From Oscillospiraceae bacterium (GTDB taxonomy: Bacteria > Bacillota > Clostridia > Oscillospirales > Ruminococcaceae): a DNA stretch of 64,000 bases. The notes beneath the pieces were generated by a model, which was given only the letters and a program-made list of their open reading frames with translations, was not told the origin of the DNA and did not search any database. Each line of letters begins with the position of its first letter. The first letter of the stretch is position 1. Made by a program: the position numbers and the translations under genes. This document shows, piece after piece, positions 6,413 through 61,522 of the stretch. The stretch is from assembly GCA_017466885.1 (NCBI GenBank), contig JAFTTH010000024.1, positions 39,434-103,433 of the forward strand, in the 5' to 3' direction.

Positions 6413-6435
6413 ATCAGGTCAACCTCCTTTTGTTG

Positions 6436-7206
6436 TTATCGGGGAGGAAGCTCCCCGGTCAGATGCTTCAGATAAATTTCCGGCTCCTCCAAAAAGCTCC
6501 GGGTCAGTCGGTAATGCTCCGTTTGGGTATAGTGGCAGAGCCGGATTCCATCCTCTCCCAGCCAGAAAAGCTCTGAATGGGGACAGGCCATAAGAATGGG
6601 GGAGTGGGTTGCAATCAAAAATTGAGAGCCTTCTGCCGCCAATGTGCAGATCCGCTCCAGCAAGGCCAGAAGACGGGAAGGAGAGAGGGCGGCCTCCGGC
6701 TCATCCAAAATGTAAAGTCCGTTTCCGCCGAACCGTTCCACCACAAGGGTTAAAAAAGCCTCCCCGTGGGAAAGGGTGTGGAGAGATTTTCCGCCGTAGG
6801 ACATAGAAATAGGCGGCGCGGCGGCTGGAATCTCATCCAGCCGGTCAATGTAAGAGGTGGCGTTGTAAAAGCTTTCCGCCCGGAGAAAAAATCCGTCCCG
6901 GGGACGGCGATAGCCCCGCAAAAGGGTCAGATGCCGGTAAAAGCCCGAATGGGTCTCGGCGGTGGCAAAGGAAAAGTTTCGGCTTCCTCCCTCGGGGTTA
7001 AAGCCGGCCGCAACGGCAATTCCTTCAATCAGGGTGGATTTGCCCATTCCGTTTTCCCCGGCAAAGAAGGTGATGGGCGCAGAAAAGGTCAGGCCTTCTT
7101 TTGCAATCTGTTGCAGGGCGGGAATGGCAGAATAGTATTCCCCTTGGGGCAATGCCTCGCAGGATAATCCGGTAAGAAAGTGCCGGGAAAGGGTGGAATG
7201 CTCCAT
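6436..7206 (-). CDS. AAA-family ATPase of the ABC/RecF-like class
   Basis: A 256-aa soluble ATPase. Walker A is FFAGENGMGKST (about residues 47-58), an ABC-signature-like TLSHGEA lies near 143-149, Walker B is LYILDEPEAALSP (about 163-175) and a His switch is seen in IATHSPIL. This matches the compact stand-alone AAA_21-type ATPases with no fused nuclease or transport domain. The cellular role is unknown. It ends 23 bases before miaA and starts after the FemAB-like gene, so the genes may be co-transcribed. Confidence 0.8.
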   Translation of the reverse strand: MEHSTLSRHFLTGLSCEALPQGEYYSAIPALQQIAKEGLTFSAPITFFAGENGMGKSTLIEGIAVAAGFNPEGGSRNFSFATAETHSGFYRHLTLLRGYRRPRDGFFLRAESFYNATSYIDRLDEIPAAAPPISMSYGGKSLHTLSHGEAFLTLVVERFGGNGLYILDEPEAALSPSRLLALLERICTLAAEGSQFLIATHSPILMACPHSELFWLGEDGIRLCHYTQTEHYRLTRSFLEEPEIYLKHLTGELPPR

Positions 7207-7223: not shown

Positions 7224-8285
7224 TCAGCTACGGCTCTGTCTGGACCGGCCCAGACGGAGCTTTGCGGCCTTGACCTTGGGCAGCAGTGAAACGAATCCGG
7301 TGTAAATTACCGGGTTGAAAACAAAATCCAGCTCCCCAACATACTCGGTGACTCCCACGCTTCTGCAGAAGCCTTCCTTGAACTTAAAAAGTCCGTTTTC
7401 TTTGGTCAGCTCGTAAACGCCGCCGAAATCGTAGATCTTCTTGCCCAGCTCCAGACCCCAGCGGATCATGCTGTCCTGCATGGCGTAATTGGGCATCAGA
7501 TTCCGTTTTTCGTTGGAGGAGGCGCCGTAAATATACCACATCTTTTCTCCGTAATTGAGAGCGATGGCGGCCGAAAGAGCCTCTCCCTCGTGCTCGGCAA
7601 CGTAAACCCGGAGCATCTCCCCGGGAAATGCCTCCAGCATCCGCTGGAAATATGCCAGGGGACGTCCTGCAATTTTATCCCGCAGCGCGGTCACACGGTT
7701 CAGCTCATAGAAGGTCTCAAGATCTGCCGGATCGCGGGAATACCGCACCGTAACACCCTTTCGCGCGGCGTAACGAATATTATACCGGGTCTTTTCACTA
7801 TAAGAGGAGAGAAGCTCCTCATAGCTTTTTCCGCCAATGGGAAGCACCATATTAAAGCGGGGCTGGATGGTATCGTGAGCATCCAACTGGTGCCCCCGCA
7901 CCCGGAAGCCGGCCTCCCGATACCGGGCAACGGCCTCCTCTGACCATTTGACCTCCGGATCCAGCCGCAATGCAAAGCAATGCCGCGCCTTCAAAGCGGG
8001 GGTTGCCTCCCGAATCAGCTGAAGAATCGCCTGGGTATCCTCCGGATCGCAAACCGGACCCTTGGGAGCGTAGGCGAGGGTCAGTCCTCCGCCGCAGGGC
8101 TTGAGAAGGAGGCTCATCGCACCGGTAATCTGCCCCTCCTTTTCGGTATAAACACACAGAGAACCCCACCCCTCCTTTACCTCTGCCCAGAGACGGTCCT
8201 GGGTAGCGGAGGCAAAAGGGGAGGTACGGATAAACGCATCATATCTTGCAACGTCCTCAGCATTCTGCAACGATAAAACGGGCAT
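7224..8285 (-). CDS. FemAB/FemX-family peptidoglycan bridge aminoacyltransferase
   Basis: A 353-aa protein with tandem GNAT-like folds as in Fem ligases, which add amino acids from aminoacyl-tRNA to the stem peptide of lipid II. Recognisable parts are TRYNIRYAARKGVTV (about 165-180), LAYFQRMLEAFPGEMLRVYVAEHEGEAL split over about 210-240, YGASSNEKRNLMPNYAMQD (about 262-280) and FGGVYE with a late FKEGFC motif. It has no membrane segment, consistent with a cytoplasmic enzyme. AAAGGAAG precedes the ATG at 8285. Which residue is added cannot be read from sequence. Confidence 0.85.
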   Translation of the reverse strand: MPVLSLQNAEDVARYDAFIRTSPFASATQDRLWAEVKEGWGSLCVYTEKEGQITGAMSLLLKPCGGGLTLAYAPKGPVCDPEDTQAILQLIREATPALKARHCFALRLDPEVKWSEEAVARYREAGFRVRGHQLDAHDTIQPRFNMVLPIGGKSYEELLSSYSEKTRYNIRYAARKGVTVRYSRDPADLETFYELNRVTALRDKIAGRPLAYFQRMLEAFPGEMLRVYVAEHEGEALSAAIALNYGEKMWYIYGASSNEKRNLMPNYAMQDSMIRWGLELGKKIYDFGGVYELTKENGLFKFKEGFCRSVGVTEYVGELDFVFNPVIYTGFVSLLPKVKAAKLRLGRSRQSRS

Positions 8286-9358: not shown

Positions 9359-10936
9359 ATGGGACTGAAAAAGGAAAGTGTTCTGTATCATTCCTCTGCC
9401 CTGGCCGGATCGGCGATCCTGCTGCAGGGAATGGGGTTTGTTTACCGGATCATCATCAGTCGGCTGGCCGGCGCAGAGGGAATGGGCATTTTTCAGCTGA
9501 TTATGCCGATTTATGCGGTCCTTTCCGCTCTTTGTCTCTCGGGGTTGACTATGGCTGTCTCTGCAAAAACAGCAGAATGCCGCGGCCGGGGAGATGGGGA
9601 AAGCTGTGCCGCCCTCCTTGGAATGGTATTTCGAATTTTTTCCGGGGCCCTTTTCCTCTGTGCGGTGCCGGTCGTTCTATGCTCCGGCTGGATTGCCCGG
9701 GCACTCATTGGACAAGAGGAGGTTCGTCCCGCCCTATTGCTGATGTTGCCCTGTCTTGCACTCACCGGAATCGAGAATATCCTGAAAAACTATTTTTTGG
9801 GGAAGGCGCAGCTGGTGCCACCAATCCTTTCTGAGCTTGCCGAGCAACTGATCCGAATCGTGGCGGTCACCCTTTTGCTCCTCCTTTCCCACCCGAAAAA
9901 TGCTGCCGAGGCGGGCTGCCTGATCATCCTGGGGATGGTCTGCAGCGAGGTTTTCAGCGCCATTTTTCTGATCTGTTGCTGTCGGAGAGAACAGAAAAGA
10001 AACACCTCATTGCCTTCCTGCCGGCCGGTGTTGCCCCGGGGGCTTCCCCTGGCCGGGAATATCCTTTCCGTGGCGGTGCCGGTCTCCCTTTCGGGAGCGC
10101 TGAACCAGCTGATCGGGTCGGCAAATCAGCTTTTTCTGCCCAGAGGGCTGGAGCAATCGGGAATGACGGCCGGAGAGGCTGTCTCTGCGGTGGGGGTTTT
10201 TTCGGGAATGACTCTGCCGCTGTTGATGTTGCCGGGAATCTTTATTTTTCCCCTCAATTCAGTTCTCTTGCCTCGCATTTCTGCCGATACGGCCGCCTCC
10301 AATCGGTCAGATATCCGCCGGAAGACGGGGAAAGCCATTCACGTGACCTCTCTGCTGGGAATGCCCTCCATCGCCTTCCTTTGCCTGACCGGGGAGAGTA
10401 TCAGCCGGATGATGTATGGCTCCGCAGATCCTGCAGAGGGACTCCTGCCTCTGTCCCTTGGGGCGTTAATGAGCTTTTATAATGCCGTGACCTGCGCGAT
10501 TCTCAATGGCCTGGGATATGCCAAGCGGGTATCGGCAATATGCGTGGCGGAGGGGTTGATCCAACTGCTCTGCACCCTCCTTGGTACACCCCACTGGGGG
10601 ATCAGCGCCTATGTGGCAGGGTTTGTGGTCAGCTCTGCCTTTGGCGGGGTGATCACAACGGTATGGGCGATCCAAAAAAGCGGAGTCCACCTGCGCGGAT
10701 GGAACTGGTTTATTTTGCCCGGGCTGGGATCGGCGGTAGGGATCCTTCTGTCCCGCCCGGCCTATCACCTGCTTCTTGCCCGGACGGAAAATGATCTGCT
10801 CCCGGTGGTTGTGGGAGGCGCTATTATGCTGATGGGATACGGAACAGTCCTCAGACTTGCGGGTATGCGTCCTATCCGCTATTTGAAAGGAATTTTAGAG
10901 GAAAAAGAAATGCCGGTCACAGGGGTTGCCCTATGA
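9359..10936 (+). CDS. SpoVB/Wzx-type polysaccharide flippase family protein
   Basis: A 525-aa integral membrane protein with about 14 hydrophobic segments, of the MOP flippase superfamily. The N-terminus (LAGSAILLQGMGFVYRIIISRLAGAEGMG, read over residues 15-43) matches stage V sporulation protein B and its paralogues, which are thought to move lipid-linked precursors during cortex or polysaccharide assembly. GAAAGGAGCGGGG precedes the ATG at 9359. It stands alone on the plus strand, divergent from arginase and convergent with the TIM-barrel gene. It may be a SpoVB paralogue serving another polysaccharide. Confidence 0.85.
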   Translation: MGLKKESVLYHSSALAGSAILLQGMGFVYRIIISRLAGAEGMGIFQLIMPIYAVLSALCLSGLTMAVSAKTAECRGRGDGESCAALLGMVFRIFSGALFLCAVPVVLCSGWIARALIGQEEVRPALLLMLPCLALTGIENILKNYFLGKAQLVPPILSELAEQLIRIVAVTLLLLLSHPKNAAEAGCLIILGMVCSEVFSAIFLICCCRREQKRNTSLPSCRPVLPRGLPLAGNILSVAVPVSLSGALNQLIGSANQLFLPRGLEQSGMTAGEAVSAVGVFSGMTLPLLMLPGIFIFPLNSVLLPRISADTAASNRSDIRRKTGKAIHVTSLLGMPSIAFLCLTGESISRMMYGSADPAEGLLPLSLGALMSFYNAVTCAILNGLGYAKRVSAICVAEGLIQLLCTLLGTPHWGISAYVAGFVVSSAFGGVITTVWAIQKSGVHLRGWNWFILPGLGSAVGILLSRPAYHLLLARTENDLLPVVVGGAIMLMGYGTVLRLAGMRPIRYLKGILEEKEMPVTGVAL

Positions 10937-13025: not shown

Positions 13026-15365
13026 TTAACCTCCAATATCTTCTTCGGCAACTTCTCCGCGGCTGATGGCGCGGTAATCTGCAGGGTTGCAGCCGGTGTA
13101 TTTTTTGAATACCCGGCGGAAGGAACGGTCATTTTCGAAGCCGGCCTGTTCCGCAACGGAAAGGATGGTATCCTCGGTATCGGTCAGAAGCTCCTTTGCC
13201 CGGTCGATCCGCTTCTGATTGACGTAATCCAGGAAGTTAAAGCCGGTAATGCTCTTGAACATCTTGGAAACAGAATATTCCGGAACAGAGAACCGGGAGG
13301 AAATCTCCTTTAGGGAGAGGTTATAATCAGTGAAATGTTCCCCAACGTAAGAGATAATATCGGTATAGATTTTGTTATTCTCGGTTTTGATCTGATTGTC
13401 AAACCCAAATTCGCAAATGGAGGAGAAAATCCGGCGAATAGCCGCCCAGCATTGCAGCTCGGAGAGGGAATCCAGCCGTTGCTCCAGCTCGGTCAGTTCA
13501 TCCATATCCTCCTGCCCCATCTTTTCCAGAATGCTTAAAGCAGTGCCCAAAAGGCGGTTGATGAGGTTTTTCTTCATAGAGGCGGAAAGCTGACGGATGG
13601 TGCAGTTTTCACGGATCACATCATCCAGGATCATATTGACCTCTTCAAGATTTCCCTTCAGGGCCTCATAGATCAGTTTGTTTTCCCAGTCGCTGGGATA
13701 GAAATAATACCGGTCAGCGGTGCTGTTATACTTGAGGAAGCCATCCATCAGATAGTTCTCGGTAAAGGTCTGCCAAACGAAGAATTTCTCCGCAATCTGG
13801 AAGGATACAGGAATACCGTTGACCCCCAGACGGGATTCACCCACTGAGCAGAAAAGAACGGTGGAATATTTTTCCGTCAGTTCTGCGCACAGGTTTTCGT
13901 AAATATTCCGGAGGGTATCCCGGCTCATTTCCTGCTTGCCCTTGATAATAACGGCATACTTCCCGGCAGAGATCTCCACATGCTGCCAAAGCTGGTAGTT
14001 GCTTCCGCTGATGGCCCGGGCGCTGCAGTTGACGATCTCACCCCAAAGCCGTTCCACACCCGTTTGTGTCAGAAGCCGGTCAAATCTGCTTTGCTCCGCA
14101 ACGCCGATCAAAATCACACAATAATAGTTTTCGCTGTCAAACTCCAGAAGGTTTTCCGAAAGAAGCCGGACGGTATCACCGGTAAGGGTAAAGGAGCTGG
14201 TCATTATGGAGGTCAGAAGCTTGTTCCAGACGGCCTTCTCATATTTTTTGGAGTACTCCTCGGCCTTGGCAACCTCTGTACTCCAGGTGGATAGGGTCGA
14301 TTCAATATACTGGTATTCGTCATTGGTGGGTTTTTCTGCGGAGGTGCGGTCCACCTCTTTGATCTTGGAAACGATCCGTCCCAGCGGTTTATAGTTGAAA
14401 TAAACGAACACCACCGAAAGCAGTCCGCCGATAATCAGCGCAAAAAGGGAGGAGGAGAGAATGAATTGATAGATCAGCTCTGCCATTTCGGTCATATAGC
14501 TGTTTTCATAGGTCAGAAAATACCGGAAGGGGGAGGTTTGGGAATCGATCTGGATCACGGGTGCACCACCCACCTGAGCAATGCCGTCGCTGTCATACTC
14601 TGTGGAAAGACAGATGTCTGCAGCATTGTGGTCTCCCAGGAGGATTTCATTGGTGGCGATATTACAAAGATAGAGCTCCTCATAATCGGCATCCACGAAG
14701 GAATCCCGAATCATCTGGGCAAGCTCCTCGGTATTCAGCTCCATCACAACGAAAAAGCCGCTGCCAGAGCCGTTGTAAAGGATCAGAGGTCGCGCCGAAG
14801 CGAGGCGAACGTAGGTATCATATGCCATATATTCATTATTTTCATAGAAGGGAATCAAAGCCTCATCATAAAAAGCTTTGGAATAGGAGTAGTCGTTCCG
14901 CTTGGAGGCAACGAAGGATTCCTCCAGGGAGTGACTGCCGGTTTTATTCACAACGATATCCGTTTGGGGGAAATACACGGTGATGTTATCGATAAACCGG
15001 TCAGCATTGCAGTAGCTATTGAGCTGAGAGGAGAGGGTCTTTAAATCCACCGAAAGATCTTCCGATGCAAAAATATAGGGTGATGAAATAAAGTTGATCC
15101 GCTCAAAAAGAGAAATGCTGACGGCAGTCTTCTCAGCGGCCTCCAGCTTGCTGTCCAGATACTGGCTGATCTTGAGGGAGGAGGAGATCAGCTTATTCCG
15201 GGACTCGGTGGTGGCAAATCCTGAGCCGAAGGAAAACAGCACCACACAGATCGTGGCCACGCTGCAGAAAACTACAGTAAGATATGAGACAGTCCATCGG
15301 TGCCCAATCTGGCGATGCTTTCCTCCGAATAGGATGGAAGGTTTCTTTTTCATCCCGCGTTTCAC
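13026..15365 (-). CDS. Membrane-anchored AraC-family transcriptional regulator (YesN-like architecture)
   Basis: A 779-aa regulator. A first membrane segment lies at about residues 25-48, a 240-residue extracytoplasmic sensor region follows, and a second membrane segment is near 295-325 (FALIIGGLLSVVFVYF). A long cytoplasmic linker then leads to a C-terminal double helix-turn-helix (about 675-770: LKEISSRFSVPEYSVSKMF, then AEQAGFENDRSFRRVFKKY). It carries no kinase or receiver domain, so it should sense and regulate in one chain. The start is uncertain: GTG at 15365 has AAAGG too close, and ATG at 15353 lacks a good site. Proteins of this type usually control neighbouring LplABC-type sugar transporters; here the shared box in three promoters supports this. 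Confidence 0.88.
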   Translation of the reverse strand: MKRGMKKKPSILFGGKHRQIGHRWTVSYLTVVFCSVATICVVLFSFGSGFATTESRNKLISSSLKISQYLDSKLEAAEKTAVSISLFERINFISSPYIFASEDLSVDLKTLSSQLNSYCNADRFIDNITVYFPQTDIVVNKTGSHSLEESFVASKRNDYSYSKAFYDEALIPFYENNEYMAYDTYVRLASARPLILYNGSGSGFFVVMELNTEELAQMIRDSFVDADYEELYLCNIATNEILLGDHNAADICLSTEYDSDGIAQVGGAPVIQIDSQTSPFRYFLTYENSYMTEMAELIYQFILSSSLFALIIGGLLSVVFVYFNYKPLGRIVSKIKEVDRTSAEKPTNDEYQYIESTLSTWSTEVAKAEEYSKKYEKAVWNKLLTSIMTSSFTLTGDTVRLLSENLLEFDSENYYCVILIGVAEQSRFDRLLTQTGVERLWGEIVNCSARAISGSNYQLWQHVEISAGKYAVIIKGKQEMSRDTLRNIYENLCAELTEKYSTVLFCSVGESRLGVNGIPVSFQIAEKFFVWQTFTENYLMDGFLKYNSTADRYYFYPSDWENKLIYEALKGNLEEVNMILDDVIRENCTIRQLSASMKKNLINRLLGTALSILEKMGQEDMDELTELEQRLDSLSELQCWAAIRRIFSSICEFGFDNQIKTENNKIYTDIISYVGEHFTDYNLSLKEISSRFSVPEYSVSKMFKSITGFNFLDYVNQKRIDRAKELLTDTEDTILSVAEQAGFENDRSFRRVFKKYTGCNPADYRAISRGEVAEEDIGG

Positions 15366-15386
15366 AACCTTTGCTTTGATGGTTAT

Positions 15387-15449
15387 ATTTTATTCAAAAT
15401 TTGCCCGTTCGGCAATATGACTTTTTTTGCCAGCCAACGGACGAAATTT
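15387..15449 (-). promoter_or_regulatory. Regulator promoter with GGCAAAAAA activator box
   Basis: On the minus strand the -35 is TTGCCG (15410-15415), the spacer is 17 bases and the -10 is TAAAAT (15387-15392). Upstream lies the box GTCCGTTGGCTGGCAAAAAA (15425-15444). The GGCA of the box begins 39 bases before the -10, the same distance as in the two plus-strand promoters at 15546 and 21395. Confidence 0.7.
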
Positions 15450-15493
15450 GAAAAATGGCTTAAAAAGGCGCTTTTTTTAAATTGCTATGCAAA

Positions 15494-15551
15494 AATTGTC
15501 CGCTCCGGCAAAAAAATGCCAGCAGACAAAGTATGAAAAAAGTGTTAAGAT
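15494..15551 (+). promoter_or_regulatory. Promoter of the secreted-protein gene with GTCCG...GGCAAAAAA box
   Basis: An extended -10 TGTTAAGAT (TAAGAT at 15546-15551) has no good -35. Centred well upstream is the box TTGTCCGCTCCGGCAAAAAA (15496-15515), whose GGCA starts 39 bases before the -10. The missing -35 and the fixed box suggest an activator-dependent promoter. Confidence 0.7.
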
Positions 15552-15603
15552 GGCCTTGCAGATCGATTTGCTCTGCGAAAAAAATCAAGGAGGATCTCCT
15601 ACC

Positions 15604-16665
15604 ATGAAAAAATTACTTACCCTGCTTATGGCTGTTGCAGTACTGGCAATGTCCTTTACTTTTACTGCAAGTGCCGCCGAAACAAAAGTAGGCATCAATG
15701 ATGCATCCAAATGGCATCCCTGCTTCCTGACTGAGGAAGAAGACCGTCTTTGGAAAACTCCTGACCAGTCTGTTACTGTTAATAATGACGGCAGCGTCAC
15801 CTTTGCCGGCATCGGCGGTGACCGCGAAAACTTTACCTATGGCTTCTCCGAGCCCATCAATTTCCCCGCAGAGGATCTTGTAATCGAGTTTACCATCAAC
15901 GAGGGCATGGAGCCTGAAATGCTCTTCGCATTTGCTTTTACTGATATTCCCAACTGGGCTTCCTGGTATAGCAATAACGACCATGTGGGCTTTGGATTTA
16001 ACGTCCGTCCCGTTGACCGTGCAGAGTTCCATACCTTCAATGCCCTTGAGTGGCCCACCACCAACGAAGGAGTGCTCTTCCCCCAGGACGACGGACATCC
16101 TGCTCATGCCGATAAGGATGAGAAAATGACCTACGTTTTCACCCACACCGATAAGGGAATGGCCCTGTATGTCAACGGAGTGGAGATCGAGGGCTTTGAG
16201 GATTCTTACAGCGAGTTCTATATGGACGTTGTTCTCCCCGAGGGCAAGAGCTATCTGTCTGTTTCCGGCCTGAACTATACCTTCGACCCTGAACTGGAGT
16301 CCAAGCTGACCATTCATACCGTTAAGACTATGCCTAAGGGTACTGCGCTGGGCGGTTCCGAGCAGCCGACTACCTCTGATGCTCCTGATGCTTCCGAGCC
16401 CTCTGACGAGACTCCCTCCACCGATGGACCTGCCATTGATGACGGAACCTCTGAAGAAGAAATCGGCGGTGCCGAGTCCTCCGCTCCTTCTACCGACGCT
16501 TCCGACGTTACCTCTGAGGATGCCTCCAGCGTTATCAATGCCGGTAACGGAGGAGAAGGCCCCAATGTTGGGTTGATTATTCTGATCGTTGTTCTGGCTG
16601 TGGTCGTGGTTGCGGCAGTTGTTGTGGTCGTAATCATCCTGATGAAGAAGAAAAAGGCTGAATAA
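15604..16665 (+). CDS. Secreted, C-terminally membrane-anchored beta-sandwich-like surface protein
   Basis: A 353-aa surface protein. Residues 1-23 form a signal peptide ending near ASA-AE. Residues 24-230 are beta-rich with aromatic patches (NWASWYSNNDHVGFGF, MALYVNGVEIEG), resembling a lectin or carbohydrate-binding sandwich, though no family could be named. A Ser/Thr/Pro/Asp/Glu linker (about 235-310) is followed by a very hydrophobic anchor and KKKK near the end. GGAGG precedes the ATG at 15604; the longer upstream frame is not needed. It is expressed from the boxed promoter and is followed after three bases by the SGNH gene. The likely role is substrate binding at the cell surface. Confidence 0.7.
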   Translation: MKKLLTLLMAVAVLAMSFTFTASAAETKVGINDASKWHPCFLTEEEDRLWKTPDQSVTVNNDGSVTFAGIGGDRENFTYGFSEPINFPAEDLVIEFTINEGMEPEMLFAFAFTDIPNWASWYSNNDHVGFGFNVRPVDRAEFHTFNALEWPTTNEGVLFPQDDGHPAHADKDEKMTYVFTHTDKGMALYVNGVEIEGFEDSYSEFYMDVVLPEGKSYLSVSGLNYTFDPELESKLTIHTVKTMPKGTALGGSEQPTTSDAPDASEPSDETPSTDGPAIDDGTSEEEIGGAESSAPSTDASDVTSEDASSVINAGNGGEGPNVGLIILIVVLAVVVVAAVVVVVIILMKKKKAE

Positions 16666-16668
16666 GAG

Positions 16669-17670
16669 ATGAATATCGTCTTTCTCGGTGGCTCGATCAC
16701 CTGGGGTGCCGGCGCAGACTCTTATGAAGAGTGCTGGGCCTATCGGGTCGAACAATACCTGCGAAACCGTTTTTACCGACCGATCGAAAGCTTTAATCTC
16801 GGCATTTCCGGCACTGGGTCTCGGCTGGGCGTTTTTCGCCTGGCCGACCAGGTACTTCCCTGCAGGCCGGATATCCTTATTTTCGAGTTTTCGGTCAACG
16901 ATTCGGGTCCTGCCAAGCAGAATGCCGATGATGTGATCGCCGATACGGAGTATATCTTCCGCACGGTGCTTCGGGAAAACCCCGGTGTGCGGATTCTGGT
17001 GCTTTCCAGCGCTATGCGGAACGGAGAGTCCTGTGTTTCCACCCATAAAAAGGTCGCCGACCATTACGGTGCCGGTCATATTGATATCCAGAGCTATTTT
17101 TCCTCTCTCGTTTCTGAAGGGGAATATACCTGGGATGATCTGTTGGTGGATGCGGTTCATCCCGCCACCAAGGGCCACGCCCTTTACGCAGATTATGTCA
17201 TCGACTGGATGGAGCGGAACCCCGACTTTTTTCTCAAGGATCTGACCCTGCCCGAGCCCATCCTTCCCAATCGGTACTTTTTCCCTGCGATCGTTGATCC
17301 GCAGCGGTTTGTGTGGACCGGCGACTGGGCGGATGAGCCCTATGAGGATGTCAAGCGGCATCCCGCGGCAAACGTCAACTCTGCCTGGACCACCCGTCAG
17401 CTGGGTGCAGAAGGAACGCTGACCTTCCGGGGCAGCACCTTCAGCATCTACCATTATGTGGGGCAGGATGGCGGAAAGCTTGAGGTTGTGGTGGATGACC
17501 GTCCCGCGGCGGTGCAGGATACTTACTATAATTGCGGTGGAGATTTCGTCTGCTTTTTCAATGTGACTGATCTGGAGTACGGCGTACATACCGTCCGTCT
17601 GCGGAATATTGAGAAAGCCCCCGGAGCGGGAGCTGGAAGAATCTCCATTGCCGGATTCCTTATCAATTAG
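16669..17670 (+). CDS. SGNH/GDSL-family esterase with C-terminal beta domain
   Basis: A 333-aa protein with all SGNH blocks visible: GGSIT with nucleophile Ser9, Gly near 48 (GISGTGS), FSVND with Asn77, and DAVH with Asp161 and His164. Residues from about 210 onwards form a second, beta-rich part (FTWTG-like WTGDWADEPYED, then FRGSTFSIYHYVG) like an accessory sandwich domain. It has no signal peptide and so is expected in the cytoplasm, where it could remove acetyl or other acyl groups from imported substrate. Its ATG is three bases after the previous stop and has only a weak ribosome site, which points to translational coupling. Confidence 0.82.
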   Translation: MNIVFLGGSITWGAGADSYEECWAYRVEQYLRNRFYRPIESFNLGISGTGSRLGVFRLADQVLPCRPDILIFEFSVNDSGPAKQNADDVIADTEYIFRTVLRENPGVRILVLSSAMRNGESCVSTHKKVADHYGAGHIDIQSYFSSLVSEGEYTWDDLLVDAVHPATKGHALYADYVIDWMERNPDFFLKDLTLPEPILPNRYFFPAIVDPQRFVWTGDWADEPYEDVKRHPAANVNSAWTTRQLGAEGTLTFRGSTFSIYHYVGQDGGKLEVVVDDRPAAVQDTYYNCGGDFVCFFNVTDLEYGVHTVRLRNIEKAPGAGAGRISIAGFLIN

Positions 17671-17848
17671 GGGAACGGTTTGTTTGTAAACTATATCATA
17701 GCATAAGTATTCAAATCTTGTAAATCCTTTTTTCTAACCCTTGTACCAATTCCGCTCTGGCGGATTGAGATGCAAATCTCCGCTTTGTCTGCGGCGGAGT
17801 GGCGGGGGATCTCGCCAAAAATCTGCAGACAGGAAAGAAAGAGTACAA
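17671..17848 (+). other. Structured leader before the repeat-containing surface protein
   Basis: This 178-base gap has no gene. Several inverted repeats can be drawn: CCGC/GCGG at 17752-17763, GAGAT/ATCTC near 17767-17780, and GTCTGC (17787-17792) with GCAGAC (17825-17830) enclosing a GGCG/CGCC stem. The last one ends just before the AGGAAAG ribosome site. No convincing promoter or GGCAAAAAA box was found, so transcription may come from upstream or from an unrecognised promoter. Confidence 0.4.
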
Positions 17849-20089
17849 ATGAAAAAGGTTCTCTCCATCGTCATCGCTTTGGCAATGATCGTTGGTACTG
17901 TTTCTGCTTTGGGCATTTTTGCTCACGCAGAAGATGCGGCTTCTGCCAGCATTACTGCAGCAGATTTGACCGCCAACGATTATAACAACGCCACCGCGAC
18001 TGATACTGCAGAAGGCATCAAGCTGCAGGGAACAAATGTCAAGTACACCTACTCCCAGAAGATCCCCGTCAATACCGAGGGCTTTGAGATGGTGCTGGAT
18101 GCGGATGCCTTTCCCGCCGATGGCTGGATGGTTATCGGCTTGAGCGATACTCTGCCCATTCAGGGCTGGGGCGCTCATCAGACCAACGCGATCGTTATGG
18201 TTGTTCGCGTGGATACCACCGACGGTTGGACTGCTCTGTCCGGCCTTTCCTACGGTGGCGAGAGTAACTACCCCGTCCATAGCCTGCAGACCACAATGCC
18301 CTTTACTTTGACTGCCGGTCAGGAGGTTGCCATTGAGGCTAAGGTTGTCGGCGAGACTTATGAGATCTACTTCAACGGCACCAAGGTTGCCACCCATAGC
18401 TTTGCTGCGGATGCTTTTGCTTGGCTGGACGATGCGCTTGCCGAGGGTGCAATGCTCTCCTGGTCCTTCTATAGCGCTTCCAACGGTGACTATGATGTGA
18501 CCGTCAAATCCATCAATGGCAAAAAGGGTGGTATGATCGGTGCCGATCAGTTTACCGCCAACGCTGAACACAATAATTCTACCGCCACAAACACTGAAGA
18601 AGGCGTTAGACTGCAAGGAAACCGCGTGCGTCATACCTTCTCCCAGAAGATTCCCGTCAACACCGAGGGCTTCAAAATGGTTATGGATGCAGATGCCTTC
18701 CCTGCAGATGGATGGATGATCGTCAGCCTGAGCGATACCGCTCCTATCATCGGTTGGGGCGCTCATCAGACCAATGCGATCGTTATGGTTGTTCGCGTAG
18801 ATACCACCGACGGTTGGACTGCTCTGTCCGGCCTTTCCTACGGTGGCGAGAGCAACTACCCCGTCCACAGCCTGCAGTCTACTATGCCCTTTACTTTGAC
18901 TGCCGGTCAGGAGGTTGCCATTGAGGTTAAGGTTGTTGACGAAACCTATGAGGTCTACTACAATAACACATTGGTTGCCACCCATAGCTTTGCTGCGGAT
19001 GCTTTTGCCTGGCTGGACGATGCGCTTGCCGAGGGTGCAATGCTCTCCTGGGCGTTCTATAGCGCTTCCGGAGCGGCTGATGCCAATTATGATGTGACCG
19101 TCAAATCCATCAACGGCGTTGCTTGCGGCGGCGTTGCCGATGACAACACCGGCGATGACAACACCGGCGATGACGATACCGGCGATGACAATACCGGCGA
19201 TGACAACACCGGCGATGACAATACCGGCGATGACAATACCGGTGACGACAATACCGGTGACGACAATACTGGTGATGACAACACCGGCGACGAGGCTACC
19301 GGTCTCTTCGCCCCCTCCACCAGCGCGGATGCTGCCGGACAGACTGTTGTTGAGAATGATGATGGTACCGCTACCCTGACCGGTACTGCTGTTCGCGTGA
19401 TCTACAATGAGAAGATCGACATCAACAAGGATGGCTTCAAGTTCGAGTTCTCTGCCGATATGCCCGATTCTGCGTTCCTGATGGTCAGCCTGACCAAGGC
19501 CGGTGCCATCCGTCAGTGGCAGAACTTCTCCGGCGATGATGCCCGCAGCGGTATTATCAATATCTTCAAAAACACCACCGCTGATGGCTGGAGCATCCAG
19601 TCCAGCCTCTCCTACGATCAGGCTCCCGGTTGGGCTGTTCACAGCACCAAGCCGATTGTTGGCGATCATGATCTGACCGAGAAGCACACCTTCGAGATCC
19701 GCTATGAGGATAAAAAATACGTTCTCTATATGGACGGAAAAGCCCTCACCATCGGTACCAGAGAAGTGCTTGCGGCTCATAAGGCTGATCCTTCCCTTGA
19801 CCCTGAGGTTGGCGGAAACTTCGGCTGGCTCCCCGGCGAATTTGCCGAGGGTGCAGTCCTCTCCATTGCGATGTATGACAATGCCAACAGCGGTGAGGAG
19901 ATGGAACTGAACATCGACTACATCGGTGCTGCTACCGGCGCTGCCGATGATAACAATAATGACGACAATAAGGCTCCCGATACCGGTGACAACAACGCTG
20001 TCTCTGCGATTGCTTTGACTGCTGTTGTTTGCGCCATTGTTGCGGGCGGTGTTGTGGTCTTCCGCAGAAAGAGAAGCACTCAGCACTAA
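17849..20089 (+). CDS. Large surface protein with tandem repeat domains and a cell-wall sorting-like C-terminus
   Basis: A 746-aa exported protein. A signal peptide (about 1-27) precedes two tandem domains of 196 residues that are nearly identical in their central part. An Asp/Asn/Thr/Gly linker of eleven 5-residue units (DDNTG) follows, then a third, diverged copy of the same fold (about 490-695). The end is APDTGD followed by a hydrophobic segment and RRKRSTQH, which resembles the NPxTG-type sortase signals of Clostridia. AGGAAAG precedes the ATG at 17849. Domain character (aromatic and beta-rich, SYGGESNYPVHSLQ) suggests a carbohydrate-binding or laminin-G-like fold; this is inference. It probably displays substrate-binding modules on the cell wall. 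Confidence 0.75.
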   Translation: MKKVLSIVIALAMIVGTVSALGIFAHAEDAASASITAADLTANDYNNATATDTAEGIKLQGTNVKYTYSQKIPVNTEGFEMVLDADAFPADGWMVIGLSDTLPIQGWGAHQTNAIVMVVRVDTTDGWTALSGLSYGGESNYPVHSLQTTMPFTLTAGQEVAIEAKVVGETYEIYFNGTKVATHSFAADAFAWLDDALAEGAMLSWSFYSASNGDYDVTVKSINGKKGGMIGADQFTANAEHNNSTATNTEEGVRLQGNRVRHTFSQKIPVNTEGFKMVMDADAFPADGWMIVSLSDTAPIIGWGAHQTNAIVMVVRVDTTDGWTALSGLSYGGESNYPVHSLQSTMPFTLTAGQEVAIEVKVVDETYEVYYNNTLVATHSFAADAFAWLDDALAEGAMLSWAFYSASGAADANYDVTVKSINGVACGGVADDNTGDDNTGDDDTGDDNTGDDNTGDDNTGDDNTGDDNTGDDNTGDDNTGDEATGLFAPSTSADAAGQTVVENDDGTATLTGTAVRVIYNEKIDINKDGFKFEFSADMPDSAFLMVSLTKAGAIRQWQNFSGDDARSGIINIFKNTTADGWSIQSSLSYDQAPGWAVHSTKPIVGDHDLTEKHTFEIRYEDKKYVLYMDGKALTIGTREVLAAHKADPSLDPEVGGNFGWLPGEFAEGAVLSIAMYDNANSGEEMELNIDYIGAATGAADDNNNDDNKAPDTGDNNAVSAIALTAVVCAIVAGGVVVFRRKRSTQH
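17950..19130 (+). repeat. Two tandem 588-bp coding repeats
   Basis: The DNA starting at 18181 recurs at 18769, an offset of 588 bases (196 codons). Over about 165 bases the copies differ at roughly ten positions, including matches at most wobble sites, which indicates recent duplication or gene conversion rather than old domain similarity. Confidence 0.85.
19139..19303 (+). repeat. 15-bp tandem repeat coding for a DDNTG linker
   Basis: Eleven 15-base units (consensus GATGACAACACCGGC, with variants in the third and last units) encode ten DDxTG units and one DEATG. It links the second and third domains of the surface protein. Such repeats can vary in copy number between strains. Confidence 0.9.
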
Positions 20090-20107
20090 TCTGAACTGAT
20101 CCCCGGA

Positions 20108-20150
20108 GGGAGGAGCGGTCCCTGGCCGCTCCTCGCCTCCCGTCCCTTTT
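20108..20150 (+). terminator. Terminator-like hairpin after the surface-protein gene
   Basis: GAGGAGCGG (20110-20118) pairs with CCGCTCCTC (20126-20134); after a C-rich stretch there are four T residues and AATAA. It is only 21 bases before the next start, leaving no room for a promoter, so partial read-through is likely. Confidence 0.55.
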
Positions 20151-20170
20151 AATAAGGAAAGGTGAGCACG

Positions 20171-21343
20171 ATGGAAAATTCCAAAATTGCGCGATTTTCT
20201 GCCGGCTGTTCCGCCGCAAAGCTGACTCCCACCCGGGATGTTTTTCTGGGCGGCTATGCCGATAAGGATGATGAGATCAATCTCTGTGTTTATCCCGATC
20301 ATATCCTCGGGGATGTTTACGTCCGTACCCTGGTGCTGGAAGGGGAGGGGCAGAGAGCGCTCTTCGTCTGCGTGGATGCCTGTGTAATCAACGAGGGAAG
20401 GAATGTCTATGACGGTTTCCGTCAGGATCTTGCTCTTGCCGCAAATACACAGCGGGATCGCGTTTTTATTATCAATACCCATAACCACCAGTCCCATAAA
20501 TACCTGCAGGAGCCCGAAACGGAGATTATTCTTCAATCAGTGCGGGATGCGGTTGCCGATCTGGAGCCCTGTACCGGGGAATACCTGATCTGCAGGGGCG
20601 GTCCCGGCGTCTGCCGCAGACCGCGGTACGGTGTTGCACCCGATCTTCCATATGACAATACCGTAACCCTTCTGAAACTGCTCCGGGAATCGGGGGAGGA
20701 GAAGGCGTTTATTATCAACTACCCGCTCCATAATACCGGATTTGGAAACGGAACGATTCCTAACTGGAAGTATATGTCTCCCGAACTGATGGGATTTGCT
20801 TTGATGAAGCTGGAGCAGATGGGCCGCACCCCCTTCTTCTTTGACGGGTTTTACGGCGCCTCGGGTCCGAACTTCTCGGGTTCTCCCACCGCCGATCACG
20901 ATACCATCCGAAAAACAGGTGAGGACTTCGCTCTGTGGCTTGCCGCAAGGGAAGGATATCAGCCGGTGGAAGGGAAAGGGGTATCCTTCCTTCATTGGGT
21001 CAGGCGGATCCCGGTCAACCCGGTCTATGGCCCCGATGCCGGTGAGAACATGGAATTTTTCGGTTGTTGCTTTGGTAAGTTGGCCTTTTTGGGGGTCAAC
21101 TGTGAACCCTTTTCTGAGTTGGGCGCGGAGATTCGTAAAACATCTGCTTTTGAGCCCACCCTGTTTCTTGGCAATGCCAATGGATTTTTGGGATATATCC
21201 CCGTTTCCTCCGCTTTTGATGATGAGCGGGAACTGGAATGCAAACTGAATAAAACCCCCTTTACCAAAGGGATTGCAGAGCAGTTTACCGATCTCTGCCG
21301 GCAATTTTTGTCCGCTCTTGCGGATGTGGAGGAAAACTCATAA
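20171..21343 (+). CDS. Neutral ceramidase-like family hydrolase, cytoplasmic
   Basis: A 390-aa protein without signal peptide. The first 110 residues fit the neutral/alkaline ceramidase N-terminal fold (FSAGCSAAKLTP, DVYVRTLVLEGEG, VCVDACVI), with the metal-binding THxH seen as THNHQ at 103-107. The place where true ceramidases have GDVSPN reads GASGPN here, so the known nucleophile Ser is not conserved in register. Substrate is therefore unknown. AAAGGTG supports ATG 20171 over the GTG at 20162. A related domain is present in the lipoprotein at 25064-28015. It lies just before the transporter promoter and may process imported substrate. Confidence 0.65.
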   Translation: MENSKIARFSAGCSAAKLTPTRDVFLGGYADKDDEINLCVYPDHILGDVYVRTLVLEGEGQRALFVCVDACVINEGRNVYDGFRQDLALAANTQRDRVFIINTHNHQSHKYLQEPETEIILQSVRDAVADLEPCTGEYLICRGGPGVCRRPRYGVAPDLPYDNTVTLLKLLRESGEEKAFIINYPLHNTGFGNGTIPNWKYMSPELMGFALMKLEQMGRTPFFFDGFYGASGPNFSGSPTADHDTIRKTGEDFALWLAAREGYQPVEGKGVSFLHWVRRIPVNPVYGPDAGENMEFFGCCFGKLAFLGVNCEPFSELGAEIRKTSAFEPTLFLGNANGFLGYIPVSSAFDDERELECKLNKTPFTKGIAEQFTDLCRQFLSALADVEENS

Positions 21344-21344
21344 A

Positions 21345-21400
21345 TTGTCCGCCCCGGCAAAAAATAGCACCTTTTCTTTTTTGCCGGATCATGGTAGGAT
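21345..21400 (+). promoter_or_regulatory. Transporter promoter with GTCCG...GGCAAAAAA box
   Basis: The box TTGTCCGCCCCGGCAAAAAA (21345-21364) is nearly identical to that at 15496 and its GGCA starts 39 bases before an extended -10 TGGTAGGAT (TAGGAT 21395-21400). There is no good -35. The predicted transcript start, near 21407, excludes little leader for the GTG at 21415 and favours the later start codon of the permease. Confidence 0.7.
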
Positions 21401-21465: not shown

Positions 21466-22425
21466 ATGTCGCGAAAAGCAAAAGAATTAGCTCCACCCAT
21501 TGTCCCAAAACAGCCGTGGTATAAGCAGCTTTGGAGAGACCGATATCTCTATATGATGCTTCTCCCGGTTATGGCTTTGGTCTTTATCTTTATGTATGTC
21601 CCGATGGGGGGCATCCTGATGGCTTTTCAGGAATACTCCATCGGTGGCCCGATCCTTCCTTGGGATCCGGGTGTGAAATGGGTCGGATTCGAGCATTTTA
21701 TCCGATTCTTTGAGTCGGAATTTTTTGGACGGATCATCTGGAATACCGTCCGAAACTCTCTTCTGACCTTTGTGCTGGGCTTTTGGGTGCCCATTGTGTT
21801 TGCCCTTCTTCTCAATGAGATCGGCAATAAATACTTCAAAAAGGTTGTCCAGACGGTCAGCTATATGCCCCACTTCATCTCTACCGTTGTTGTGGCGGGC
21901 ATTTTGCTGGGCATTCTGGATTATGATGACGGTATCGTCAACCAGATGGTTGAGATGCTTGGCCTTGACCGGATCAACTTCTTCAATGAACCGGTCTACT
22001 TTCCGTTCATTGTTGTTATTTCAGGCGTGTGGCAGTCCTTTGGCTGGAATAGTATCCTTTACCTTGCTGCAATCGCCGGAATCGACCAGTCTCTTTATGA
22101 GGCAGCCCGTTTGGACGGCGCTTCCCGTCTGCAGCAGATCTGGCATATCACCCTCCCCGGAATTACTCCCACCATCGTTATTATTCTCGTGTTTGCGCTG
22201 GGCGGAATCCTCGGCGGCGATATGGAAAAGATTCTCCTGCTTTATAACCCCGGAATCTATGAAACAGCGGATATCATCCAAACCTATACATATCGGGAAG
22301 GAATTTACGGCTTCCAGTATAGTTACAGTACCGCTGTCAGCCTCTTCGTTTCGGTTCTGAACTTCGCCCTGGTATTCGGTGCGAATAAGGTGTCAAACAA
22401 ACTGACCGATTACGGTCTGTGGTAA
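21466..22425 (+). CDS. ABC transporter permease, LplB/YtcP class (first permease)
   Basis: A membrane subunit of a carbohydrate or oligosaccharide importer, 319 aa from the ATG at 21466 (ATG 21448 and GTG 21415 are alternatives; none has a strong ribosome site). Six membrane segments are expected: the first is LYMMLLPVMALVFIFMYVP. The EAA loop that contacts the ATPase reads YEAARLDGASRLQQIWHITL near the last third. The region MAFQEYSIGGPI after the first segment is typical of LplB. It is followed by the second permease and the binding protein; no ATPase is encoded in the operon. Confidence 0.88.
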   Translation: MSRKAKELAPPIVPKQPWYKQLWRDRYLYMMLLPVMALVFIFMYVPMGGILMAFQEYSIGGPILPWDPGVKWVGFEHFIRFFESEFFGRIIWNTVRNSLLTFVLGFWVPIVFALLLNEIGNKYFKKVVQTVSYMPHFISTVVVAGILLGILDYDDGIVNQMVEMLGLDRINFFNEPVYFPFIVVISGVWQSFGWNSILYLAAIAGIDQSLYEAARLDGASRLQQIWHITLPGITPTIVIILVFALGGILGGDMEKILLLYNPGIYETADIIQTYTYREGIYGFQYSYSTAVSLFVSVLNFALVFGANKVSNKLTDYGLW

Positions 22426-22462
22426 GCTTTGACAAAGATCCAAAACGGAAAGGAGTAAAAAA

Positions 22463-23383
22463 ATGTTGCTTGCAAAACAAAAACATCACGCATTTAAGAA
22501 AACACCGGGACAAATCTTTGCGGATGTGATCATTTATATTATTGTTGGACTGGCGGGCGTTGTCACATTGCTTCCTATGGTGTATATTCTCGCTATGTCC
22601 CTCAGCGACCCGGGAGCTGTTCTCCGTCAGGAGGTCTTCCTGATCCCTGTCGGCTTTACTCTGGATGCCTTTAAGACCATCGTTCAGCTGGAGGGGATCG
22701 GCAGAGCCTATTTGAATACGGGGATTTACCTTGTGTCCATCGTGGTGCTGTCCGACCTTGCCACCGTTTTGGCGGCATATCCTCTCTGTGTCCGGCGTCT
22801 GTTCGGACGGAAATTCTGGACTGTCTTTCTGATCATCCCGATGTTCTTTGGGGGTGGACTGATCCCCAGCTTTGTTTTGATGGTCAACCTGGGCCTCTAT
22901 AATAGCTATTGGGCGATCATCATTCCCTCCATTGTTTCTCTGTGGAATATCGTTCTGGTCCGAACCTATTTCCGGACACTGCCTTATTCCCTTTTCGAAA
23001 GTGCCTATATTGACGGTGCAAACGACCTGCAAACCCTCTTTAAGATTGTCGTTCCTCTGGCAAAGCCGATCGTCGCCGTTATCACCCTGTATACGGCGGT
23101 CGGCGTTTGGAATAGCTGGTTCAATGCCCGGTTGTACCTTGCGGATGAGGAGCTTTATCCTTTGCAGTATTATCTTGCCCAGCTCCTTGTTTTTAAGCCT
23201 ACCGGAATTGAGGATAAGATTGACGTAATCGATAAGGGTGCTGAACTGATCAATGAGTATATGCAGGCATCCCAGCTCAAATACGCAATGATCATCTTTG
23301 TCACAGGGCCAATTCTCTGCATCTATCCCTTCCTGCAGAAATACTTCATTAAGGGCGCACTGATCGGTTCCCTGAAAGAGTAG
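22463..23383 (+). CDS. ABC transporter permease, LplC/YtcP class (second permease)
   Basis: A 306-aa membrane subunit with six hydrophobic segments and the EAA loop FESAYIDGANDLQTLFKIVV (about residues 183-202). The start region (PGQIFADVIIYIIVGLAGVVTLLP) and SDPGAVLRQEVFLIP are typical for LplC-type subunits. AAAGGAG precedes the ATG at 22463. It forms the membrane channel together with the preceding gene product, and the pair lies directly before the binding lipoprotein. Confidence 0.9.
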   Translation: MLLAKQKHHAFKKTPGQIFADVIIYIIVGLAGVVTLLPMVYILAMSLSDPGAVLRQEVFLIPVGFTLDAFKTIVQLEGIGRAYLNTGIYLVSIVVLSDLATVLAAYPLCVRRLFGRKFWTVFLIIPMFFGGGLIPSFVLMVNLGLYNSYWAIIIPSIVSLWNIVLVRTYFRTLPYSLFESAYIDGANDLQTLFKIVVPLAKPIVAVITLYTAVGVWNSWFNARLYLADEELYPLQYYLAQLLVFKPTGIEDKIDVIDKGAELINEYMQASQLKYAMIIFVTGPILCIYPFLQKYFIKGALIGSLKE

Positions 23384-23423
23384 TCGACGAAAAATAAAAA
23401 TACAAATTAAGGAGATTATCAGG

Positions 23424-25028
23424 ATGAAAAAACGTATTGCGGCAATTTCTCTTTGCGGAATCCTTTCTTTGAGTATGCTTTTTACCGCCTGTAACGGTTC
23501 TGAAGGAACCGAAAGCACGGGGGATTCCTCCCGTCCGACCATCAAGATCCTGACCGTCCAGCGGGCGGACAGCAACTATCCCATCGAGGAGGAATCGGTT
23601 GTAACCAAAGCCATTGAGGAGAAATCCGGTTTTAATATGGATATTGAAGCCATTGAAGAAACAAACTATGGCGACATTATGAATACCCGTTTGGCGGCCG
23701 GACTGAACCTGCCTGATATTATGTTCACCGGCTATTCCAACTCCCTGAAGCCGGCACAGAACGGCCTCTACCTGCCCATCAACGATTTGATTGAAGAGCA
23801 CGCTCCCAACCTGAAAAGCGTTCTTTATGGCGAGTTCGACGCAGTCCGCAGGATGAACATTGCTCCGGATGGAAAGCTTTATTGGGTTCCCGGTATTGAC
23901 CAGGCTCAGTACCAGGGTCAGCCGATTTCTGCAGTGCACGGTGTTGGCATCCGGAAGGATTGGCTGGATAAGTGCAGCCTGGATGTTCCCACCACCACAG
24001 AAGAGCTCTACCAGGCTCTGAAAGCCTTCCAGGAGAACGATTGCAACGGAAATGGCAAAAAGGATGAGGTTTTCGTTTCCTGGTTTGGCTTCCAGGATGT
24101 TATGCTTGCATGGTTTGGCGTTCCGCAGGCGTCGATCACCATTGCGGAGGATGGCAAGGCCAAGTATATCTGGAATTATGAACACGCCTATGACTTTACT
24201 GCATATATGAGAAAGCTTTATTCGGAAAAGCTTTTGGATCAGCAGATCTTCAACCTGACCGGCGAGAATATTCTCAAGCGCGTTACCGTTAACCGCGCCG
24301 CGGCGATCTGCTACTGGGCGGATTGCTCCGGCTTCGATGCGCAGACCGGCGATCCCAATGCAAAGTATGTGACCATGCCTCCTCTCCGCACCGATGTCGG
24401 CACTGCCGGAGCAATGAAGCTCAGAAGCAGCGGAAATACCGGTGCAAACTTCGCCATCACCAAAGCCTGCAATACCGATGAGAAGAAGATCAATGCCATC
24501 AAGTTTATGGATTGGTTCTATTCTCAGGAGGCCCGGGATATGGTGGTTTGGGGCGTTGAGGGCGTTCACTGTGTCAAGAATGAGGATGGAACTTATTCCG
24601 AGCATCCCGATTTCAAAGCAAGACAGGAAAGCGATGCTACCACCGTTCTGGACGATGTTTATGATTGGGTTCCCTGCCTGCCCTTTATGCGCATTTCCGA
24701 CTGGGAGGCCAACAATATAAAACACGAGGGCGATGAGGATGCGATGGCACGTGCACAGGAGTCTCTGACCATCTCCCTTTGGGAGGAGAGCGTTTACGCC
24801 ACGACCGACATTGCCCTTCCCACCGATGAAGAAGAGAAGCTTGCCACCCAGTATGCCAACGAGATGGGTACCTATGCCATCGAGTCCATTACCAAGTTCA
24901 TCAACGGTCGCGATGAATTGAATAAAACCACCTGGGCGGCTTTCCAAAATAAGCTGTTCAATGATTTCCACCTCCAGGATCGTTTGGATATTTATGAGGA
25001 ACAGTATCGGCGGTATCAGGAAGGTTGA
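23424..25028 (+). CDS. Extracellular solute-binding lipoprotein of the LplA/YtcQ class
   Basis: A 534-aa lipoprotein: signal peptide with lipobox LFTAC (Cys near residue 23), a Ser/Thr/Gly tether, and a two-lobed family-1 solute-binding fold (NTRLAAGLNLPDIMFTGY, VGIRKDWLDKCSLDVPTTTEEL, AVTKACN-like ITKACNTDEKKINAIKFMDW). The length and the GNTGANFAITKACN region match the long LplA-type proteins that bind oligosaccharides. AAGGAG precedes the ATG. It is the third gene of the transporter operon and would deliver substrate to the two permeases. Confidence 0.9.
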   Translation: MKKRIAAISLCGILSLSMLFTACNGSEGTESTGDSSRPTIKILTVQRADSNYPIEEESVVTKAIEEKSGFNMDIEAIEETNYGDIMNTRLAAGLNLPDIMFTGYSNSLKPAQNGLYLPINDLIEEHAPNLKSVLYGEFDAVRRMNIAPDGKLYWVPGIDQAQYQGQPISAVHGVGIRKDWLDKCSLDVPTTTEELYQALKAFQENDCNGNGKKDEVFVSWFGFQDVMLAWFGVPQASITIAEDGKAKYIWNYEHAYDFTAYMRKLYSEKLLDQQIFNLTGENILKRVTVNRAAAICYWADCSGFDAQTGDPNAKYVTMPPLRTDVGTAGAMKLRSSGNTGANFAITKACNTDEKKINAIKFMDWFYSQEARDMVVWGVEGVHCVKNEDGTYSEHPDFKARQESDATTVLDDVYDWVPCLPFMRISDWEANNIKHEGDEDAMARAQESLTISLWEESVYATTDIALPTDEEEKLATQYANEMGTYAIESITKFINGRDELNKTTWAAFQNKLFNDFHLQDRLDIYEEQYRRYQEG

Positions 25029-41680: not shown

Positions 41681-41771
41681 AGGAATTCCTGCCTTTCGAT
41701 GGAAATACAATGGTAGTATAACCTGACAAAAATCCCCTATTCGTTTCCTGTTATCCCTTGAAAATAAGAAA

Positions 41772-61452: not shown

Positions 61453-61522
61453 TGTCCATTCTCCTTTGTGTTATTGTCAGCAGTTGCCCGCTTTGTGCCG
61501 TTGTTAAATGATCGCTTGCTTC

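What the first reader, a model, noticed from the sequence alone, without database searches (positions are those of the whole stretch)
15387..21400. Three promoters share one operator-like box at exactly 39 bases from the -10
The box GTCCG(Y)...GGCAAAAAA occurs on the minus strand before the AraC-type regulator gene (GGCA start at 15431), and on the plus strand before the secreted-protein gene (15507) and the permease gene (21356). In all three the GGCA lies 39 bases before the -10 hexamer (TAAAAT, TAAGAT, TAGGAT). The two plus-strand promoters have extended -10s and no -35, as expected for activated promoters. This predicts a regulon with autoregulation by the encoded membrane AraC protein.
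Basis: partly seen in the sequence, partly recalled or inferred. Interest (0 to 1): 0.8.

Follow-up and report, generated by a model that had tools for sequence, protein, structure and literature searches.

The report
Membrane regulator's shared operator box
Two neighbouring gene clusters that likely serve sugar uptake and breakdown carry the same 23-base DNA box at the same distance (39 bases) from their predicted promoter cores, and the box is likely the landing site of a predicted membrane-anchored AraC-type regulator encoded next door, which would make this a tidy local switch of a familiar kind.

Summary
Boxes A (15493-15515) and B (21342-21364) are one 23-mer with a single C/T difference; the 20-base core occurs nowhere else in the 1.82 Mb held genome at up to 1 mismatch. 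GGCA lies 39 bases before an extended -10 at both; about 2 of 20000 shuffles match that. The minus-strand box M is weaker: its GTCCG-GGCA gap is 6, not 4. Promoter A has a 4/6 -35, so 'no -35' fits only B. The regulator has two predicted TM helices and an AraC HTH; a protein search found no close relative, so footprinting was impossible. Most likely the box is the operator of this local activator; autoregulation is possible. Of 22 comparable loci, 7 had a box pair to test, and 0 of 9 pairs shared a -10 offset, so a general 39-base rule is not supported. New member of a known kind.

The parts
13026..15353 (-). AraC-type regulator, 775 aa from ATG 15353 (GTG 15365 also possible): predicted TM at about 26-44 and 302-320 (numbered from the GTG), ectodomain between, AraC HTH about 665-767
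   Evidence: PF12833 E 4.7e-20, PF00165 E 2.6e-7; HTH range; two hydropathy peaks
15387..15392 (-). Promoter M -10 TAAAAT (regulator gene); TTGCCG -35-like with 17-base spacer
15391..15473 (+). Module 1 of the duplicated divergent region
   Evidence: aligns directly with module 2, score 27 against shuffle mean 10.5, 0 of 1000
15400..15414 (+). Arm s1 TTTGCCCGTTCGGCA, inverted partner of box M, overlapping the M -35
   Evidence: 24 of 1000 shuffles
15428..15442 (-). Box M GTCCGTTGGCTGGCA; GGCA starts at 15431, 39 bases before the M -10
15486..15557 (+). Module 2 of the duplicated divergent region
15493..15515 (+). Box A AAATTGTCCGCTCCGGCAAAAAA; GGCA at 15507
15517..15530 (-). Inverted arm behind box A (minus strand TTTGTCTGCTGGCA)
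   Evidence: 2 of 1000 shuffles
15546..15551 (+). Promoter A -10 TAAGAT with TGn
15604..16665 (+). Predicted secreted, membrane-anchored protein (353 aa), first gene of cluster A
   Evidence: signal-peptide-like start and C-terminal hydrophobic run read from translation
16669..17670 (+). GDSL-like acylhydrolase
   Evidence: PF13472 E 1.5e-19; PDB 6hfz E 5.6e-21
17849..20089 (+). Large predicted secreted repeat protein (746 aa)
20162..21343 (+). Protein with weak Ceramidase_alk similarity, 16.3 bits, below the 32.1 cut-off
21342..21364 (+). Box B AAATTGTCCGCCCCGGCAAAAAA; GGCA at 21356; its first two bases overlap the stop codon of the gene before
21377..21387 (-). Inverted arm behind box B (TTTTTTGCCGG on +), perfect 11-base inverted repeat with CCGGCAAAAAA
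21395..21400 (+). Promoter B -10 TAGGAT with TGn
21466..25028 (+). Two permeases and solute-binding protein of a sugar-type ABC transporter
   Evidence: PF00528 twice, PF01547
25049..31131 (+). Beta-helix protein with F5/8 type C domain, then a GH106-like (alpha-L-rhamnosidase) protein

Best explanation
Boxes A and B are the same 23-base sequence, each 39 bases (from its GGCA) before a predicted extended -10, and they are likely one operator that the adjacent, predicted membrane-bound AraC-type regulator would bind to switch on the two gene clusters. Shown: the boxes, their uniqueness in the held genome, the spacing, the AraC HTH, and the duplicated module in the divergent region. Inferred: when the ectodomain meets an extracellular signal, one C-terminal DNA-binding domain would sit on the distal box (about -62 to -43 of the predicted start) and a second on the poorer inverted arm nearer the -35, recruiting RNA polymerase to promoters with weak -35s. 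The regulator gene would be controlled from module 1, where arm s1 overlaps its own -35 and box M lies upstream. The genes controlled look like a set for a rhamnose-containing, perhaps acylated glycan (predicted).
For: Exact 23-mer pair, 0 expected; unique in the genome at up to 1 mismatch, the two weaker hits lying in long open frames; shared extended -10 offset in 0.0001 of shuffles; between box and -10, A and B differ in sequence while the length is kept (read directly); AraC HTH and two hydropathy peaks; among 39 window ORFs scanned with Pfam (not every ORF was scanned) the only other transcription-initiation protein found is a sigma-70 protein at 61508-62281 beside an RsgI-like protein, 40 kb away; cluster content of transporter, GDSL and GH106-like proteins. 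Precedent: in Caldicellulosiruptor bescii all four single-component AraC-family regulators of sugar use had sites upstream of mapped promoters and were read as activators (PMC8579813, sections 7 and 19 and passages).
Against: No binding or start-site data. No ortholog was found to footprint. Box M differs by 2 bases in its internal gap. The inverted arm lies at three different distances (6, 13, 22 bases between GGCA and TGCC), with 2, 24 and 53 of 1000 shuffles as good for A, M and B; of the 12 box tests only A survives correction. AraC-type sites in C. bescii are described as tandem direct repeats; direct second copies here were not significant (6 tests, 61 to 991 of 1000 shuffles). The 39-base rule was not seen elsewhere (0 of 9 box pairs in 7 of 22 loci).
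Confidence: 0.68

Rival explanations
1. The box is bound by a different protein, for example a dyad-binding regulator encoded elsewhere; the AraC protein controls something else.
For: The box itself is a weak dyad (TTGnCnG/CnGnCAA, read from the sequence) and inverted arms follow it. The own genome has 6 further places matching this regulator (7 matches with itself).
Against: The core is confined to this locus, as for a cognate local regulator; no other HTH regulator gene was found in the locus.
Confidence: 0.17
2. Only A and B are real operators; box M is a by-product of duplication of the divergent region, and the regulator gene is not autoregulated, or is repressed rather than activated. 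(Compatible with the best explanation for A and B.)
For: Modules 1 and 2 align as direct copies (0 of 1000 shuffles) and also inverted (2 of 1000); in the direct alignment A pairs with s1, not with M. M has a 4/6 -35 and a 5/6 -10, so it may need no activation; s1 overlaps the M -35.
Against: M keeps GTCCG, GGCAAAAAAA and the 39-base distance.
Confidence: 0.4
3. The 39-base spacing is coincidence or common descent of the promoters, not a mechanical constraint.
For: A and M lie in related modules; 3 of 28 GGCAAAA sites have -10-like hexamers at 31 as well as 3 of 28 at 39; A and B share a plain -10 offset in about 1 of 100 shuffles; none of 9 box pairs from other loci shared an offset.
Against: B shows no evident likeness to A between box and -10, yet keeps 39 (read directly); extended -10 at the same offset in 0.0001 of shuffles.
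Confidence: 0.2
4. The B box with its perfect 11-base inverted repeat is a terminator-like hairpin of the gene before it rather than an operator.
For: CCGGCAAAAAA and TTTTTTGCCGG flank 12 bases just after the stop codon at 21343; 3 of 500 shuffles as good.
Against: No T run follows the right arm; the simple terminator scan did not list it; the same box at A is not behind a gene end.
Confidence: 0.06

Closest known systems
AraC-family single-component activators of sugar-use loci in Caldicellulosiruptor bescii (PecR2, HemR and others; PMC8579813, sections 7 and 19 and passages)
   Same: AraC-type regulator beside CUT1 transporter and glycan genes; predicted site upstream of the promoter of local operons
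   Different: There the motifs are tandem direct repeats with large spacers; here the second arm, if any, is inverted and at variable distance. Whether those regulators are membrane proteins was not checked
AggR-dependent promoters (PMC6392122, passages)
   Same: AraC-family activator whose single site keeps a fixed distance to the -10; an extended -10 consensus was used to list them
   Different: AggR sites lie 21-22 bases from the -10 and overlap the -35; here 35 bases separate GGCA, and 30 the end of the shared box, from the -10, too far to cover the -35 with one subunit
YesS of Bacillus subtilis and AryK of Staphylococcus (membrane AraC regulators; description recalled)
   Same: Membrane regulator with C-terminal AraC HTH; YesS is recalled to control rhamnogalacturonan genes with a like transporter
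   Different: The AryK model matches only around the HTH, 60.6 bits against a cut-off of 850; YesS itself was not compared

Membership tests
AraC/XylS family | AraC-type double HTH domain | tested here: met
   PF12833 72.1 bits (cut-off 33.6), PF00165 31.0 (26.6); PDB AraC-type chains, best 8.6e-15
Membrane AraC regulators | Two TM helices around an extracellular sensor | tested here: inconclusive
   Two hydropathy peaks above 1.4, at 26 and 302; prediction only. Ectodomain fold not resolved: AlphaFold mean pLDDT 48.3
AryK equivalog | Full-length model score above cut-off | tested here: not met
   60.6 of 850 bits
AggR-type promoter | Single site 21-22 bases from the -10 | tested here: not met
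   35 bases from GGCA, 30 from the end of the shared box
Tandem-direct-repeat AraC operator | Second direct copy of the box near the first | tested here: inconclusive
   Six direct tests, 61 to 991 of 1000 shuffles as good; the best is an 8-base TTGTCCGC at 21308-21315, 37 bases upstream of the one in box B, inside the gene before it
AraC-activated promoter | Regulator-dependent transcription | not testable with these tools
   needs an experiment

The most novel reading that the evidence does not exclude
A membrane-tethered AraC regulator works on dyad operators built of two inverted half-sites whose distal arm is locked at 39 bases from the -10 while the proximal arm floats (6, 13, 22 bases away), and its divergent control region arose by tandem duplication of one bidirectional module whose two copies then specialised, one firing left and one firing right.
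Probability: 0.25. Interest if true: 0.5.

Novelty: new member of a known kind. Interest (0 to 1): 0.32.

Why it matters
If true it gives a cognate operator to an orphan membrane AraC regulator, one of a class common in Clostridia and little characterised (recalled), and a clear, testable promoter geometry. The duplicated module also offers a small worked example of how a divergent control region can arise.

Tried and rejected
Phylogenetic footprinting failed. The protein search scored 7991 candidates and gave 11 hits: the protein itself (100%), 2 distant AraC-type proteins of like length, and 8 longer proteins (868-888 aa) that also carry kinase and receiver domains. A genome-contig scan with the whole regulator found 23 pattern matches and no relative; one with its last 120 residues gave 34 loci at 26-43% identity, judged too distant to share a box and not scanned for it. 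Of 61 genomes (own plus 60 relatives) 55 have a match; the best-scoring one outside the own genome is 25% identical.

Box search in 396 genomes of the family (19-base core, up to 2 mismatches): 120 have a match, scattered with many variants; the list of places was cut. Among the listed rows the one exact match outside the own genome (G359) lies inside a 425-aa open frame. I read the rest as background from this pattern alone and did not check them one by one, nor total the reversed-pattern control.

General '39 rule': 22 loci around AraC-type open frames of over 740 aa, picked's listing (which was cut; TM helices not checked), were fetched (9 of the 10 stretches, all 13). 15 of 22 had no intergenic box pair at score 14 or more; the other 7 had 9 such pairs, 0 of which shared a -10 offset, while the window's A/B pair (score 21) did. 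Only the best two pairs of each locus were tested, and some pairs (L066, L071) look like dispersed repeats. An earlier version of the script took false antisense ORFs in the window as genes and so reported the wrong strand there; one search tests both strands.

Structure: the regulator model has mean pLDDT 48.3 and is usable only near the HTH, so no fold search was run. Rejected: a 15487 start for the secreted protein, which would put box A in coding sequence; ATG 15604 has AGGAGG before it and begins a signal-peptide-like stretch.

Full report
What is there. The window lies on contig C16 of a 1,818,806-base, 84%-complete genome in 56 contigs. At 13026-15353 (minus) is a regulator with two hydropathy peaks (26 and 302) and a C-terminal AraC HTH. 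Divergent from it runs cluster A (15604 onward: predicted secreted anchored protein, GDSL acylhydrolase, large predicted secreted repeat protein, a protein of unknown function), followed after a 122-base gap by cluster B (21466 onward: two permeases, binding protein, beta-helix protein with F5/8 domain, GH106-like protein). That these are operons is inferred from strand and spacing. The regulator is encoded beside cluster A, not between the clusters.

The observation. Boxes A and B are AAATTGTCCGCYCCGGCAAAAAA, identical but for Y; expected 0.00 at up to 3 mismatches in 100 shuffles of the window. In the genome the 20-base core at up to 3 mismatches gives 4 hits: A, B, and two (2 and 3 mismatches) inside open frames of 379 and 353 codons. 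The looser GTCCGN(2-8)GGCAAAA gives 9 genome hits against 5 for the reversed control; 3 are A, B and M, and the other 6 lie in open frames of 353 to 730 codons. A second loose pattern, TTGYCYGNTN(1-4)GGCA, gives 11 hits against 4 for the control; 2 are A and arm s1; of the 9 others 6 were examined and lie in open frames of 186 to 444 codons, and 3 got no locus and were not examined. Open-frame length is only a rough sign of coding: box A itself lies in a 394-codon frame that runs back from the gene.

Spacing. GGCA to -10 is 39 at A, B and M. Shuffling each downstream stretch gives all three sharing a -10-like offset in 0.00035-0.0007 of trials, A and B sharing one in 0.008-0.016, and A and B sharing an extended -10 offset in 0.0001. 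Against this, 3 of 28 GGCAAAA sites in the window have a -10-like hexamer at 39 and 3 of 28 at 31, so plain -10 matches are common; the extended -10s are what stand out.

The duplicated module. A direct repeat of 37 bases (73%) links 15433-15469 with 15518-15554; its ungapped score of 17 was reached by 0 of 500 shuffles of 15366-15603 and by 1 of 500 of 15387-15560. With gaps, 15391-15473 aligns with 15486-15557 at score 27 (shuffle mean 10.5, 0 of 1000), and the same two stretches align inverted at 21 (mean 11.0, 2 of 1000). Ungapped inverted repeats in the region as a whole are not unusual (380 and 396 of 500 shuffles as good), so the dyad claim rests on the gapped alignments. In the direct alignment box A pairs with arm s1 of module 1; in the inverted one box A pairs with box M across two 2-base gaps. 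So A and M are related through the ancestry of the region as well as, perhaps, through function. In module 2 the + strand -10 reads TTAAGATGG; in module 1 the same place reads TTAAAAAGG. The M -10 lies at the left edge of module 1. This looks like one bidirectional module that was doubled, each copy keeping one working direction (inference).

Inverted arms. Behind each box, within 39 bases, lies an inverted partner: A 2 of 1000 shuffles, M 24, B 53. Upstream of the boxes the inverted tests gave 1000, 926 and 135 of 1000 for A, M and B. For B a separate whole-region test of inverted repeats gave 3 of 500. Twelve box tests were made, so only A stands on its own. None of the six direct tests was significant (A 110 and 519, B 958 and 61, M 251 and 991 of 1000, downstream and upstream). 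A published view is that AraC-family proteins read direct repeats, which a flexible linker between dimer and DNA-binding domains allows (PMC9723621, passages); AraC binding to inverted half-sites is recalled, not looked up.

Who binds. The site is confined to this locus; the AraC protein is the only HTH one-component regulator found among 39 window ORFs scanned with Pfam (some ORFs were not scanned); and the geometry, two 5-base blocks (TTGTC and GGCAA) with centres 11 bases apart, fits one AraC-type monomer reading two successive major grooves (geometry recalled from MarA). Box M, with blocks 2 bases further apart, fits less well. The box (GGCA at about -51 of the predicted start) lies further upstream than AggR sites, which sit 21-22 bases from the -10, 22 being best (PMC6392122, passages). 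So a second subunit nearer the -35 is expected; the inverted arms are candidates.

What it senses. A GH106-like protein (66 bits, but matched over 205-419 of 1039 residues only), a GDSL acylhydrolase nearest PDB 6hfz, and a beta-helix protein whose residues 63-154 resemble the starts of lacto-N-biosidase and related chains suggest a rhamnose-bearing, perhaps acylated glycan. This is weak; the substrate is open.

Other loci. In 22 fetched loci with long AraC-type proteins, 7 had intergenic box pairs at score 14 or more and 0 of 9 pairs shared a -10 offset. L079 and L075 do have repeated boxes in front of separate genes, so the general plan may recur with other letters and other spacing.

Literature. 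In the listings (one search returned none) I saw no title on this regulator or box; the regulator has no name to search by, so this says little. The closest were PMC8579813 (sections 7 and 19 and passages), PMC6392122 (passages) and PMC9723621 (passages). PMC10766802 was seen in passages only.

Verdict. A real, local operator-like box before two clusters with equal promoter geometry, likely read by the neighbouring membrane AraC activator; autoregulation possible; the three-promoter rule is weaker than it looked because two of the three are cousins by duplication.

Noticed in passing
34220-41710 (minus): 2496-aa protein with GH94 catalytic and supersandwich domains and a glucoamylase-like domain, of the cyclic beta-glucan synthase kind (kind recalled).
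   Followed up: no
61508-63764 (+): Sigma-70 protein next to an RsgI_M/PepSY protein, a SigI/RsgI-like pair.
   Followed up: no
about 19138-19300: In-frame Asp-Asn-Thr-Gly-Asp repeat run in the large secreted protein 17849-20089, after two similar domains.
   Followed up: no
L079 (G025:C86) 2279-2296 and 9522-9539 minus: Box GCAGTCYTGTCCTGAAAA repeated in front of two genes of another AraC-type locus, each ahead of a TGn -10-like site, with unlike spacing.
   Followed up: partly
L075 (G017:C10) intergenic 6312-6784, 7568-7933 and 16026-16252: A long near-identical stretch shared by the first and third region and a 23-base box shared (inverted) by the second and third, in a further AraC-type locus.
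   Followed up: partly
21308-21317: A further TTGTCCGCTC lies in the last codons of the gene before box B, 37 bases upstream of the box's TTGTCCGC.
   Followed up: partly
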